Notes under the pieces: generated by a model
The model's database searches: none
Seen by the model: only the letters and a program-made list of their open reading frames with translations
Told to the model about the DNA's origin: nothing
Made by a program: the position numbers and the translations under genes
In this document: positions 28,560 to 61,139 of the stretch, in pieces
How positions within the stretch are numbered: position 1 is the stretch's first letter
How the letters are laid out: every line of letters starts with the position of its first letter
Virus record (IMG/VR): IMGVR_UViG_3300035698_003810
Span: 20,550 to 84,549 of that record
Source: a virus
Length of the DNA stretch: 64,000 bases
Reading direction: 5' to 3' (one strand)

Positions 28560-28567
28560 TATAAATA
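28560..28567 (+). promoter_or_regulatory. T4-type late promoter abutting a terminator hairpin
   Basis: Exact TATAAATA. With the usual T4 spacing, transcription would begin near 28573-28575, inside the left arm of the hairpin that follows. A transcript begun here could not form the full terminator stem. Confidence 0.6.
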
Positions 28568-28594
28568 AAGGGGAAGAGTCAATCTTCCCTTTTT
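28568..28594 (+). terminator. Rho-independent terminator
   Basis: GGGAAGA at 28571-28577 pairs with TCTTCCC at 28583-28589 around a GTCAA loop, extended by flanking A-T and G-T pairs to about 10 bp and followed by TTTTT. It would end transcription coming from the 26-28 kb genes. Confidence 0.8.
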
Positions 28595-28614
28595 GATTTT
28601 TGAACGGAGTATAA

Positions 28615-39726: not shown

Positions 39727-39743
39727 CAGATTGATAGAAAATA

Positions 39744-39778
39744 CATAAATACTATTATATGTCAATTATGTAGTATTT
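39744..39778 (+). promoter_or_regulatory. Late promoter variant overlapping a hairpin
   Basis: CATAAATA at 39744-39751 differs from the late box at one base. AAATACTA (39747-39754) inside it can pair with TAGTATTT (39771-39778). The arrangement matches other late-box/hairpin overlaps in this window, but this one has no U-run. Confidence 0.4.
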
Positions 39779-39806
39779 AAATATTTCATCAGGGGGAGGA
39801 TTTGTA

Positions 39807-56391: not shown

Positions 56392-56535
56392 ATGGGAAAG
56401 AGTTTTAGAAGTAGCAATACGGATGATGGGTTTAAAAAAATCAAGAGTATTGACAAAAAGAAAAAGAACCGTAAAAATGACAAGGTGAAAACCGAAGGTT
56501 ATATACGAGAGAATAATAGAATGCATCAATACTAA
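56392..56535 (+). CDS. Small basic protein (47 aa)
   Basis: A short frame opening MGKSFRSSNTDDGF, with a run of Lys/Arg (KKKKNRKNDK) in the middle. It follows a gene that ends GGEK, four bases before its start. Strongly basic and likely disordered; nucleic-acid binding is a guess. No long alternative frame in the interval. Confidence 0.4.
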   Translation: MGKSFRSSNTDDGFKKIKSIDKKKKNRKNDKVKTEGYIRENNRMHQY

Positions 56536-56556
56536 CTTTTTTCAAAGGACATCACT

Positions 56557-56793
56557 ATGGAATTCGAAGATTTTATTCACAGTGAAGTTGAAAAAATTAA
56601 AATTGACAAATGGATTGAAGGTAAAAAAATACACAGAGACCCCGGAGTTGAATTTGAAATGATGTGGGTTAATAGTAATGCTAAAAATTATAGAGATGCT
56701 TGGTGTAAATCTAAATGTAGAACGTGTAAGAATTGTCAACGGTGTGGTTATAATGTGATTAGTGCTTGTGATAATTATGAGGAAATGGTATGA
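56557..56793 (+). CDS. Cys-rich small protein (78 aa)
   Basis: The last 30 residues hold six cysteines in a CKSKCRTCKNCQRCG cluster plus one more near the end (SACDNY). This could bind one or two zinc ions. The N-terminal half is acidic with HSEVEKIKIDKWIEGKKI. The spacing does not match a named zinc-finger family that I know. It ends just before a late promoter. Confidence 0.5.
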   Translation: MEFEDFIHSEVEKIKIDKWIEGKKIHRDPGVEFEMMWVNSNAKNYRDAWCKSKCRTCKNCQRCGYNVISACDNYEEMV

Positions 56794-56795
56794 AA

Positions 56796-56803
56796 TATAA
56801 ATA
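56796..56803 (+). promoter_or_regulatory. T4-type late promoter box overlapping a ribosome-site hairpin
   Basis: Exact TATAAATA. Its last bases are part of the left arm of the hairpin described next. A late transcript would begin near 56809, past the left arm. Confidence 0.65.
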
Positions 56804-56843
56804 CTCCTGAGTTTAAATAATAGTTTAACCGGGGGTATTTTTT
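56799..56843 (+). promoter_or_regulatory. Hairpin masking the patatin ribosome site, with U-run
   Basis: AAATACTCC (56799-56807) pairs with GGGGTATTT (56832-56840), with one T-G pair. The right arm contains the GGGGG ribosome site (56831-56835) of the gene starting at 56844, and a T-run follows the stem. In readthrough RNA this would both act as a terminator and hide the ribosome site. RNA from the late box would lack the left arm. Confidence 0.65.
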
Positions 56844-57758
56844 ATGATTAAAAAAGTATTATGTTTAAAAGGTGGTGGAGCAAAAGGTTATGCTCAACTG
56901 CAAGTACTGAAAGCACTGGAAAAAGAATATGGCAAACCATTACATGAAGTTTATGATTTAATTGCCGGGACATCTGTGGGTGCTATCAATGCTGCATTAA
57001 TATCAACAGGTAAATTTTCAATGGATGAACTTGAAAAAATTTACCCAAGCGTATTAAAGAAAGTGTTTACTAAAAAATGGTATAGAGTTAAGAAACCTAA
57101 ATACCAAAGAAAATATTTTGAAAAAGAATGGAGTAAATTGGTAGGAACATCGTTTACAATGGGAGACTCCAAGACTAAGTTGATGTTAACTTCTGTAGAT
57201 TTGGTTAAGGATATAAATCATTTCTTTAAAAGCTGGCATTCAGAAATGTCAAAAGAGAAAATGGTTGACATTGTTTGTCGCTCATTTGCAGCACCAATGT
57301 ATTTTGGTCACATAGTTGACAAGAAGAATAAGATGGTGTGGTCTGATGGTGGCGTTGGAAATGCAAATCTTCCTTTAAATGAAGTTAAGACTCAAATTGA
57401 ATCATTCAAGTGGTATGATTTTCCGGGCAAAGGTGATAATCAGATACAAGTAGATGCTGTTGGTTGTTTGTATCATGACCCACACCATAAGTTCAGTGAT
57501 GTGTCAAAAGATAGATGGTTGAAACAGGTGATTGATTTTATGAATCCTGCTGGTGGCGGTTTGGCAAGGGTACAAAGTTCTCAAGACCAAGTGCGTATGA
57601 TGGAGTATCTATCAAGAAAAAATTCAAACATAACATTTAGATTTTGGGATAAGGACATTCCTAAAAAATTTGACAAATTAGATGGTATTAAGTATTTGCG
57701 TGAGTATAAAAAATATGGAATTGAAATGGCAAAGAAACCTTTACTTGATTTAGTGTAG
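56844..57758 (+). CDS. Patatin-like phospholipase
   Basis: 304 residues. GGGAKG (10-15) forms the oxyanion hole, GTSVG (42-46) carries the catalytic Ser44, and the catalytic Asp is Asp169 in SDGG. The family order is complete, so activity is expected. No signal peptide, so it acts inside the cell, probably cleaving acyl chains of host phospholipids. Such an enzyme could remodel the membrane late in infection or help lysis. Its expression is likely restricted to late transcripts by the overlapping promoter and hairpin. Confidence 0.9.
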   Translation: MIKKVLCLKGGGAKGYAQLQVLKALEKEYGKPLHEVYDLIAGTSVGAINAALISTGKFSMDELEKIYPSVLKKVFTKKWYRVKKPKYQRKYFEKEWSKLVGTSFTMGDSKTKLMLTSVDLVKDINHFFKSWHSEMSKEKMVDIVCRSFAAPMYFGHIVDKKNKMVWSDGGVGNANLPLNEVKTQIESFKWYDFPGKGDNQIQVDAVGCLYHDPHHKFSDVSKDRWLKQVIDFMNPAGGGLARVQSSQDQVRMMEYLSRKNSNITFRFWDKDIPKKFDKLDGIKYLREYKKYGIEMAKKPLLDLV

Positions 57759-57774
57759 AATCGAAGGAGAAACC

Positions 57775-58164
57775 TTGACTACAAAATTGGTTACTGATAC
57801 AAACGAACGAAGCAAACAACAAGAAATGAAATTGAAGATTTGTCAATTTCCCAAGTGTAAAAAAGAATTTTTAGGAAGAGGTAAAACCAAATATTGTACA
57901 GAACACCGTAAACAAAAATATAAAAAGTTTTTGTATCAACGTCCTATAAGCAATGGCATTGGTGAAGCCAATGTCGTTGTTAAACATAAGCAAAGTAAAG
58001 CCGTTAAGGTTACACGTGTTTGTGGGTTGGATGGGTGTGAGTTTGAATATGAAATTACTCTTATTCCTAATCAAACAATATATCCTAAATTTTGTATTGA
58101 ACATCGAAATAAATACAAACGAGGTTATTTTATTAACAAACGGACTAAAGAGAATGAAATATAA
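57775..58164 (+). CDS. Duplicated zinc-finger-like protein (129 aa)
   Basis: TTG start after GAAGGAG. Two similar units: CQFPKCKKEF...KYCTEHRKQKYK (about 23-51) and CGLDGCEFEY...KFCIEHRNKYK (about 82-116). Each has C-x4-C, then C-x-x-H. This spacing would bind one zinc each. The linker is basic. It resembles small DNA- or RNA-binding phage regulators. Its end overlaps the metallopeptidase gene by 11 bases. Confidence 0.6.
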   Translation: MTTKLVTDTNERSKQQEMKLKICQFPKCKKEFLGRGKTKYCTEHRKQKYKKFLYQRPISNGIGEANVVVKHKQSKAVKVTRVCGLDGCEFEYEITLIPNQTIYPKFCIEHRNKYKRGYFINKRTKENEI

Positions 58165-58792
58165 AGAATGCCCAATATTACTGAGAACTGCACCCGGTGA
58201 AGTGTTAATTGCCAATTCTTTAATTAAGCGGTTCAAAGAACAGAACAAAGTGGATTTTGATTTAACAATTAATATTGATTTTTTATTAGAGGATAGCGGT
58301 GTATACATTCCATCCAAGAAACATAACATATATGTCAATCCTGATATGGCTATGTATACCACAGAAGATGATGCAGTCACAACTAAAAGTTATCATGGTT
58401 ATATAAATGATTGTTCGTTATTAGGAAACGTGATGCATGAGTTCGGCCACTTCTTATGTTATGAACCTTACAACGGAATAGTGGATGAATATAAAAAAGA
58501 TTTCCCAATCCAAAAAGATAGATTATATCTTTGTGCGTATTCAAATGAAACCATAGATGAAGAGATGGCAGAAATTATTAGATTGTATTTTTTGAATCCT
58601 CTATTGTTAAAATTGATAAACGAGAAAACGTATAAATTTTTTAGAAAGAAATTTAAATCTCCATCACCAACTTCACAAAGACACACAATTCAAATGGTTG
58701 ATGATTTCCCAATAACAATTAAAAATGAACTATATGATAAATGGAATATTGCTCATGATGTTAATATTGATAAAATTATAAAAGTGGGGTAA
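58154..58792 (+). CDS. HExxH zinc metallopeptidase
   Basis: 212 residues from the ATG at 58154; an in-frame start 201 bases upstream would run inside the zinc-finger gene. HEFGH (95-99) is the zinc site, and DEEMAE (135-140) offers the third ligand about 40 residues on, as in gluzincins and lethal-factor-like folds. No signal peptide; it would act on host or phage proteins in the cytoplasm. It is the second zinc protease in the window, unrelated to the SprT-like one. Substrate unknown. Confidence 0.78.
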   Translation: MKYKECPILLRTAPGEVLIANSLIKRFKEQNKVDFDLTINIDFLLEDSGVYIPSKKHNIYVNPDMAMYTTEDDAVTTKSYHGYINDCSLLGNVMHEFGHFLCYEPYNGIVDEYKKDFPIQKDRLYLCAYSNETIDEEMAEIIRLYFLNPLLLKLINEKTYKFFRKKFKSPSPTSQRHTIQMVDDFPITIKNELYDKWNIAHDVNIDKIIKVG

Positions 58793-61070: not shown

Positions 61071-61078
61071 TATAAATA
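61071..61078 (+). promoter_or_regulatory. T4-type late promoter abutting a terminator
   Basis: Exact TATAAATA ending two bases before the stem of the terminator at 61080. The expected start (near 61084) is in the left arm, so late transcripts would not form the full stem. Confidence 0.6.
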
Positions 61079-61079
61079 T

Positions 61080-61112
61080 AAAAAGGCACGGCTATTATAG
61101 CTGTGCCTTTTT
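61080..61112 (+). terminator. Rho-independent terminator after the band-7 gene
   Basis: GGCACGGCT (61084-61092) pairs with AGCTGTGCC (61098-61106), one G-T pair, extended by A-T pairs, and is followed by TTTTTT. Loop ATTAT. A strong site that would stop the early transcript. Confidence 0.9.
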
Positions 61113-61139
61113 TCTAATTTTAATTGAATGGAGTTTATC

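What the first reader, a model, noticed from the sequence alone, without database searches (positions are those of the whole stretch)
56796..56858. Late promoter overlaid on a ribosome-masking hairpin before the patatin gene
The TATAAATA box shares bases with the left arm AAATACTCC; the right arm GGGGTATTT covers the GGGGG ribosome site and is followed by a T-run. RNA reading through from upstream would fold and silence the gene, while late RNA would begin past the left arm and be free. T4 uses this same arrangement for genes such as e and soc. It would keep a membrane-damaging lipase silent until late.
Basis: partly seen in the sequence, partly recalled or inferred. Interest (0 to 1): 0.72.

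Follow-up and report, generated by a model that had tools for sequence, protein, structure and literature searches.

The report
Late-gene switch before phage patatin gene
A T4-like phage seems to keep a lipid-cutting enzyme silent until late infection by hiding its translation start in an RNA hairpin that late-made RNA cannot form; the trick is known from T4, but here it guards a new kind of gene and recurs in many environmental viruses.

Summary
TATAAATA (56796-56803) shares its AAATA with the left arm of an 11-bp stem (56799-56809 with 56830-56840); the right arm holds the GGGGG ribosome site, followed by TTTTTT and the ATG (56844) of an intact-looking patatin gene. Folding predicts a masked start on read-through RNA (opening cost 11.5-15.1 kcal/mol) and an open one on RNA starting at the T4-rule +1, 56809 (4-5). 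T4 e and soc fall in the same way. Among 136 TATAAATA sites in this record and four relatives, this one loses the most fold when RNA starts at +1; 7 of 10,000 shuffles match it. A scan found at least 119 viral stretches with the same compact layout; in 48 of 67 distinct hairpins an ATG follows within 7 nt, and stem pairs covary. Genes behind include homing endonucleases, neck gp13, tail tube and gp5. The mechanism is the known T4 e/soc/49/I-TevI switch: a new member guarding an unusual gene. Unsettled: whether the U-run also makes the hairpin a terminator, since neighbouring late promoters overlap terminator-like hairpins that leave the ribosome site free. No RNA data; gp55 was not found in this incomplete record.

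The parts
56557..56793 (+). Upstream 78-aa ORF (no Pfam or PHROG match), co-directional; its stop codon ends 5 nt before the stem
56796..56803 (+). T4-type late promoter octamer TATAAATA
   Evidence: geometry -13 to -6 from PMC2988020 passages
56799..56809 (+). Left arm AAATACTCCTG, shares AAATA with the promoter
56809..56809 (+). Predicted late transcription start (octamer start + 13); inferred, not measured
   Evidence: rule from PMC2988020; effect computed
56830..56840 (+). Right arm CGGGGGTATTT
56831..56835 (+). Ribosome-binding site GGGGG, 8 nt before ATG, inside right arm
56838..56843 (+). T-run between ribosome site and start codon; possible terminator U-tract
56844..57758 (+). Patatin-like phospholipase gene, 304 aa; GTSVG serine motif and SDGG motif present
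   Evidence: PF01734, E 6.8e-22; motifs read, their roles recalled
28560..28600 (+). Comparison: TATAAATA running into the left arm of a terminator-like hairpin, ribosome site outside
61071..61118 (+). Comparison: TATAAATA running into a strong terminator-like hairpin, ribosome site outside

Best explanation
A late-only expression switch of the T4 e/soc/49/I-TevI kind. RNA that reads in from upstream carries both arms, folds, and buries the GGGGG ribosome site, so patatin is not translated. When the phage late sigma factor directs polymerase to TATAAATA, RNA starts at about 56809, lacks the left arm, and the site is open. The T-run behind the stem probably also lets the hairpin stop part of the read-through transcription. 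Shown by sequence and folding: the layout, the predicted change, recurrence with covariation. Inferred: the start site, early read-through, the late sigma factor, lasting silence before late time.
For: Opening energy of 56828-56847 is 11.5-15.1 kcal/mol on read-through RNA and 3.8-5.2 for starts at 56808-56811 (7.4 and 5.1 for a start at 56807). Positive controls fall likewise: T4 e 15.9 to 4.1 or 1.4, soc 9.1 to 5.1, I-TevII 13.9 to 8.0; gene 49 is 16.1 with its AATAAATA variant, no short form computed. Six of seven other T4 genes lie at 2.5-6.1; denV, at 11.9, is the exception. Largest fold loss of 136 octamers, 7 of 10,000 shuffles. 48 of 67 distinct hairpins have ATG within 0-7 nt, against 57 of 211 viral and 22 of 226 cellular hairpins without TAT before them; the Y/R pair forms in 47 of 48, and inner pairs 1, 2, 3 and 5 pair beyond shuffles (at most 1 of 2000 reach the count); spacing from the G-run to ATG is 5-10 nt. 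39 of 47 testable leaders have a co-directional stop within 60 nt upstream of the stem or overlapping it. T4-type head and tail genes lie in the same record.
Against: No RNA data. gp55 (phrog_234) was not found in the record or six relatives, all fragments, and the control also rang nowhere, so that is uninformative. No other patatin gene with this leader was found, so conservation at this very gene is untested. Late promoters at 28560, 61071 and L374:8751 overlap terminator-like hairpins that leave the ribosome site free, and L374:16678 has an A+T-rich overlapping stem with the site outside; masking is therefore not the only use of overlapping stems here. In the viral collection at large the same stem is rarely preceded by TAT: 4 of 120 stretches were already held (120 less 116 new loci), and 0 of 229 oriented sites in the 116 new loci had TAT.
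Confidence: 0.7

Rival explanations
1. Mainly an intrinsic terminator fused to a late promoter: the hairpin and U-run end the upstream transcript, and late RNA starting inside the left arm escapes termination. Burying the ribosome site is a by-product of compactness.
For: TATTTTTT follows the G+C core of the stem. Two other late octamers in the window, and one in relative G006, run into terminator-like hairpins with the ribosome site outside. In 48 ATG-adjacent leaders 105 of 130 bases between TATTT and ATG are T, against 0.36 T in the last three bases before ATG in 58 window ORFs. Head and tail genes such as gp13, gp5 and tail tube also carry the leader, where silence before late time seems less needed.
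Against: The G-run lies 5-10 nt from ATG in all 48 ATG-adjacent leaders (the 0-7 nt cut for ATG sets the outer limit 5-12), which termination alone does not require. T4 e and 49 have the same layout without a U-run. The terminator scan did not list this hairpin, whose loop is longer than that scan allows.
Confidence: 0.2
2. A translational coupling device: ribosomes ending at the upstream stop (56791-56793) melt the left arm, so patatin is made when the 78-aa ORF is translated.
For: The stop ends 5 nt before the first pair, close enough for a terminating ribosome to cover the base of the stem.
Against: T4 e and 49 have their upstream stops equally close, yet for e the long RNA is reported about 100-fold down (PMC3014915 passages). 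The precise promoter overlap would be unexplained.
Confidence: 0.06
3. Chance: an A+T-rich octamer beside an unrelated hairpin.
For: The window is 32% G+C and TATAAATA is common; 7 of 10,000 shuffles reach the observed effect and 136 sites were looked at. In the whole record TATAAATA (43 matches) is no commoner than the reversed-pattern control (42).
Against: Octamer, pairing, G-run, spacing and start codon all line up, and the same layout recurs with covariation in other viruses.
Confidence: 0.04

Closest known systems
T4 gene e (lysozyme) leader
   Same: TATAAATAC in the left arm, GGAGGTATT right arm before ATG, upstream stop a few nt before the stem, same opening-energy drop; reported inhibitory structure on long RNA (PMC3014915 passages)
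   Different: T4 e has two octamers and no U-run; the gene is a lysozyme, not a patatin
T4 soc and gene 49 leaders
   Same: Late octamer (variant AATAAATA for 49) inside or before the left arm, ribosome site in the right arm
   Different: soc has a weak A+T-rich stem; neither has a U-run
I-TevI, I-TevII, segB and Aeh1 mobE endonuclease leaders
   Same: Hairpin on early RNA hides the ribosome site; late promoter starts past the left arm (PMC2988022 passages). Environmental copies of the present layout often precede GIY-YIG or HNH genes
   Different: Those genes are homing endonucleases; I-TevI also binds its own promoter
PeSL early promoter plus stem-loop cassettes of T4-type phages
   Same: Compact intergenic promoter plus stem-loop; seen only as a term in a search listing, details recalled
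   Different: Early promoter, and as recalled the stem does not share bases with the promoter or hide the ribosome site

Membership tests
T4-type late promoter / ribosome-site hairpin switch | Late octamer shares bases with or lies in the left arm | tested here: met
   56796-56803 and 56799-56809
T4-type late promoter / ribosome-site hairpin switch | Ribosome site buried in the right arm on long RNA | tested here: met
   Predicted unpaired probability at most 0.005 at 56831-56835
T4-type late promoter / ribosome-site hairpin switch | Late RNA begins past the left arm and frees the site | tested here: inconclusive
   Met if the T4 start rule holds; the 5' end is not measured. 56834-56835 stay largely paired with another stretch in the short form
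T4-type late promoter / ribosome-site hairpin switch | Early or middle RNA reads through from upstream | not testable with these tools
   Co-directional upstream ORF only
T4-type late promoter / ribosome-site hairpin switch | Phage encodes gp55-type late sigma factor | tested here: inconclusive
   0 of 7 fragmentary records; control silent too
T4-like phage | T4-type portal, protease, scaffold, major head, neck, tail sheath stabilizer, terminase and baseplate genes | tested here: met
Intrinsic terminator | G+C stem followed by a U-run | tested here: inconclusive
   Stem with four G-C pairs and TATTTTTT, but not listed by the terminator scan (loop too long for it)
Patatin-like phospholipase | Patatin domain with serine and aspartate motifs | tested here: met
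   PF01734 E 6.8e-22; GTSVG and SDGG read in the translation, motif roles recalled; no activity data

The most novel reading that the evidence does not exclude
TATAAATACYCC-loop-GGRGTATTTTTTATG is a reusable triple-overlap part in which promoter, terminator and ribosome-site mask share about 45 bases. T4-like phages outside the T-even group would fit it to genes that must be strictly late, among them homing endonucleases and here a phospholipase, and it would both stop incoming transcription and block its translation.
Probability: 0.3. Interest if true: 0.6.

Novelty: new member of a known kind. Interest (0 to 1): 0.42.

Why it matters
It extends a classic T4 control device to a membrane-lipid enzyme and to many uncultured viruses, gives a sequence signature for finding strictly late genes in metagenomes without RNA data, and raises a testable question: whether such hairpins act by masking, by termination, or by both.

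Tried and rejected
Looked for relatives of the patatin protein with the same leader: none among viral contigs, bacterial and archaeal contigs or 50 records (50 of the 125 records behind loci L004-L128). tblastn in phage records gave only Wolbachia phage WO relatives and one unnamed large phage, 27-33% identical, not T4-like. Neighbour proteins as bait: the RlaP-like protein gave nothing, the 398-aa protein one distant locus. Relatives found by the gp6-like protein do not reach the patatin region. Rfam: no match to 56500-57000 at E 1. gp55 search uninformative. P-SSM2 gp13 was fetched as a named example and shows no such leader, so the leader is not general for gp13.

Rejected: that TAT is generally attached to this stem in viruses; it is no commoner overall than in cells (0 of 229 oriented sites in the 116 new viral loci, with 4 of 120 stretches already held; 6 of 237 oriented sites in cells). 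One search left out loci already held, so its zero for viruses is partly by construction.

Rows dropped: identical hairpins were counted once (67 of 123 sites; 84 of 123 by site plus protein); leaders with under 250 nt upstream were left out (47 of 48 kept). Ten of the 84 rows have no start codon close behind and others only very short ORFs; these may be chance or ordinary terminators.

Full report
What is there. The window is bases 20550-84549 of an 84,549-base virus record. The record holds T4-type portal, protease, scaffold, major head, neck, tail sheath stabilizer and terminase genes and a baseplate wedge gene related to T4-like cyanophages, so it is a T4-like phage, probably a fragment. 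TATAAATA stands ahead of the scaffold gene (record 4769, ORF 4810), the major head gene (5675, ORF 5742) and further genes, as expected of a T4-type late promoter, which is an 8-bp TATA box about one helical turn before the start, first base at -13 (PMC2988020, passages). Against this, over the whole record the reversed-pattern control is as common as the octamer (42 against 43), although in the window the octamer exceeds shuffles (33 against 14.6).

The feature. At 56796-56803 the octamer runs into AAATACTCCTG, which pairs with CGGGGGTATTT at 56830-56840. The GGGGG ribosome site lies in the right arm, T6 follows, and ATG 56844 opens a 304-aa patatin-like protein (PF01734, E 6.8e-22) with the GTSVG and SDGG motifs in place. 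The upstream co-directional ORF stops 5 nt before the stem.

Is it chance. The fold lost when RNA starts at octamer+13 is 12.8 kcal/mol, reached by 7 of 10,000 shuffles and the largest of 136 octamers in this record and four relatives. About 0.1 such sites would be expected by chance over 136 octamers, before asking that the right arm also hold a ribosome site at the right distance from a start codon.

Predicted working. Opening the start region costs 11.5-15.1 kcal/mol on read-through RNA and 3.8-5.2 on RNA starting at 56808-56811. In the short form 56831-56833 are mostly open and 56834-56835 still mostly paired, so the freeing is large but not complete. The T4 genes reported to use this device behave alike: e 15.9 to 4.1 or 1.4, soc 9.1 to 5.1, I-TevII 13.9 to 8.0, and 49 at 16.1; of seven other T4 genes six lie at 2.5-6.1 and denV at 11.9. 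The published account for e, soc, 49, I-TevI, segB and mobE is in PMC2988022 and PMC3014915 (passages).

Recurrence. The pattern left the Y/R pair free to mismatch, yet it forms in 47 of 48 ATG-adjacent and 18 of 19 other hairpins. In the ATG-adjacent set inner pairs 1, 2, 3 and 5 exceed shuffles, pair 4 weakly, pairs 6 and 7 do not. The G-run to ATG distance is 5-10 nt in all 48. 39 of 47 have a same-strand stop within 60 nt upstream of the stem or overlapping it. The genes behind include GIY-YIG and HNH endonucleases (the commonest such group, KYGFVYIW..., is called GIY-YIG from its motif, recalled, with only a NUMOD3 match in Pfam for the member scanned), neck gp13, gp5, tail tube, distal tail and head decoration proteins.

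Masking or terminator. Both are plausible. The fixed ribosome-site spacing argues for masking. The T-rich spacer (105 of 130 bases, against 0.36 T in the last three bases before ATG of 58 window ORFs) and two other octamers in the window (28560, 61071) plus one in relative G006 (L374:8751), which run into terminator-like hairpins with the ribosome site outside, argue for termination as well. L374:8751 lies between the same two flanking gene groups as 28560. At L374:16678 and, with a CATAAATA variant, near window 39744, orthologous junctions both have AAATACTA that can pair with TAGTATTT while the ribosome site stays outside; these stems are A+T-rich and lack a long U-run, so neither masking nor ordinary termination explains them well.

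Verdict. The kind of switch is known; the patatin gene and the wide spread of this compact form are what is new here. The paper searches made listed no paper on a patatin under such control; these cover only the held open-access library and I read passages of three papers only. That the patatin is harmful, or serves in lysis, is inference.

Noticed in passing
window 28560-28600 and L374:8751-8795: Late octamer running into the left arm of a terminator-like hairpin, between the same flanking gene groups in two related phages: a promoter-terminator overlap with the ribosome site free.
   Followed up: partly
window 61071-61118: Late octamer directly followed by a strong terminator-like hairpin (AAAAAGGCACGGCTA ... 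TTTTTT) before the next gene; the predicted start keeps most of the hairpin.
   Followed up: partly
window 39740-39800 and L374:16678-16735: Orthologous junctions with a (variant) late octamer whose AAATACTA can pair with TAGTATTT, ribosome site outside and no long U-run; purpose unclear.
   Followed up: partly
L062, minus strand, near the pattern match 1204-1233: The AAATACTCC ... GGAGTATTT hairpin is present twice in tandem before a start codon, only the first copy with the octamer.
   Followed up: no
L022 1101-1754 and 9327-10030, minus strand: Two different KYGFxYIW (GIY-YIG-like) genes on one contig, each behind its own version of the leader.
   Followed up: no
window 58154-58792: 212-aa protein with an HEFGH stretch (HExxH-like metallopeptidase motif, recalled), second gene beyond patatin; only a weak sub-threshold Pfam match.
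   Followed up: no
window 56557-56793: 78-aa ORF before patatin with six cysteines near its end, possibly metal-binding; no family match.
   Followed up: no
L365 2940-3356 (T4 denV): In the T4 control set denV also has a costly start region (11.9 kcal/mol) though it was taken as an ordinary gene.
   Followed up: no
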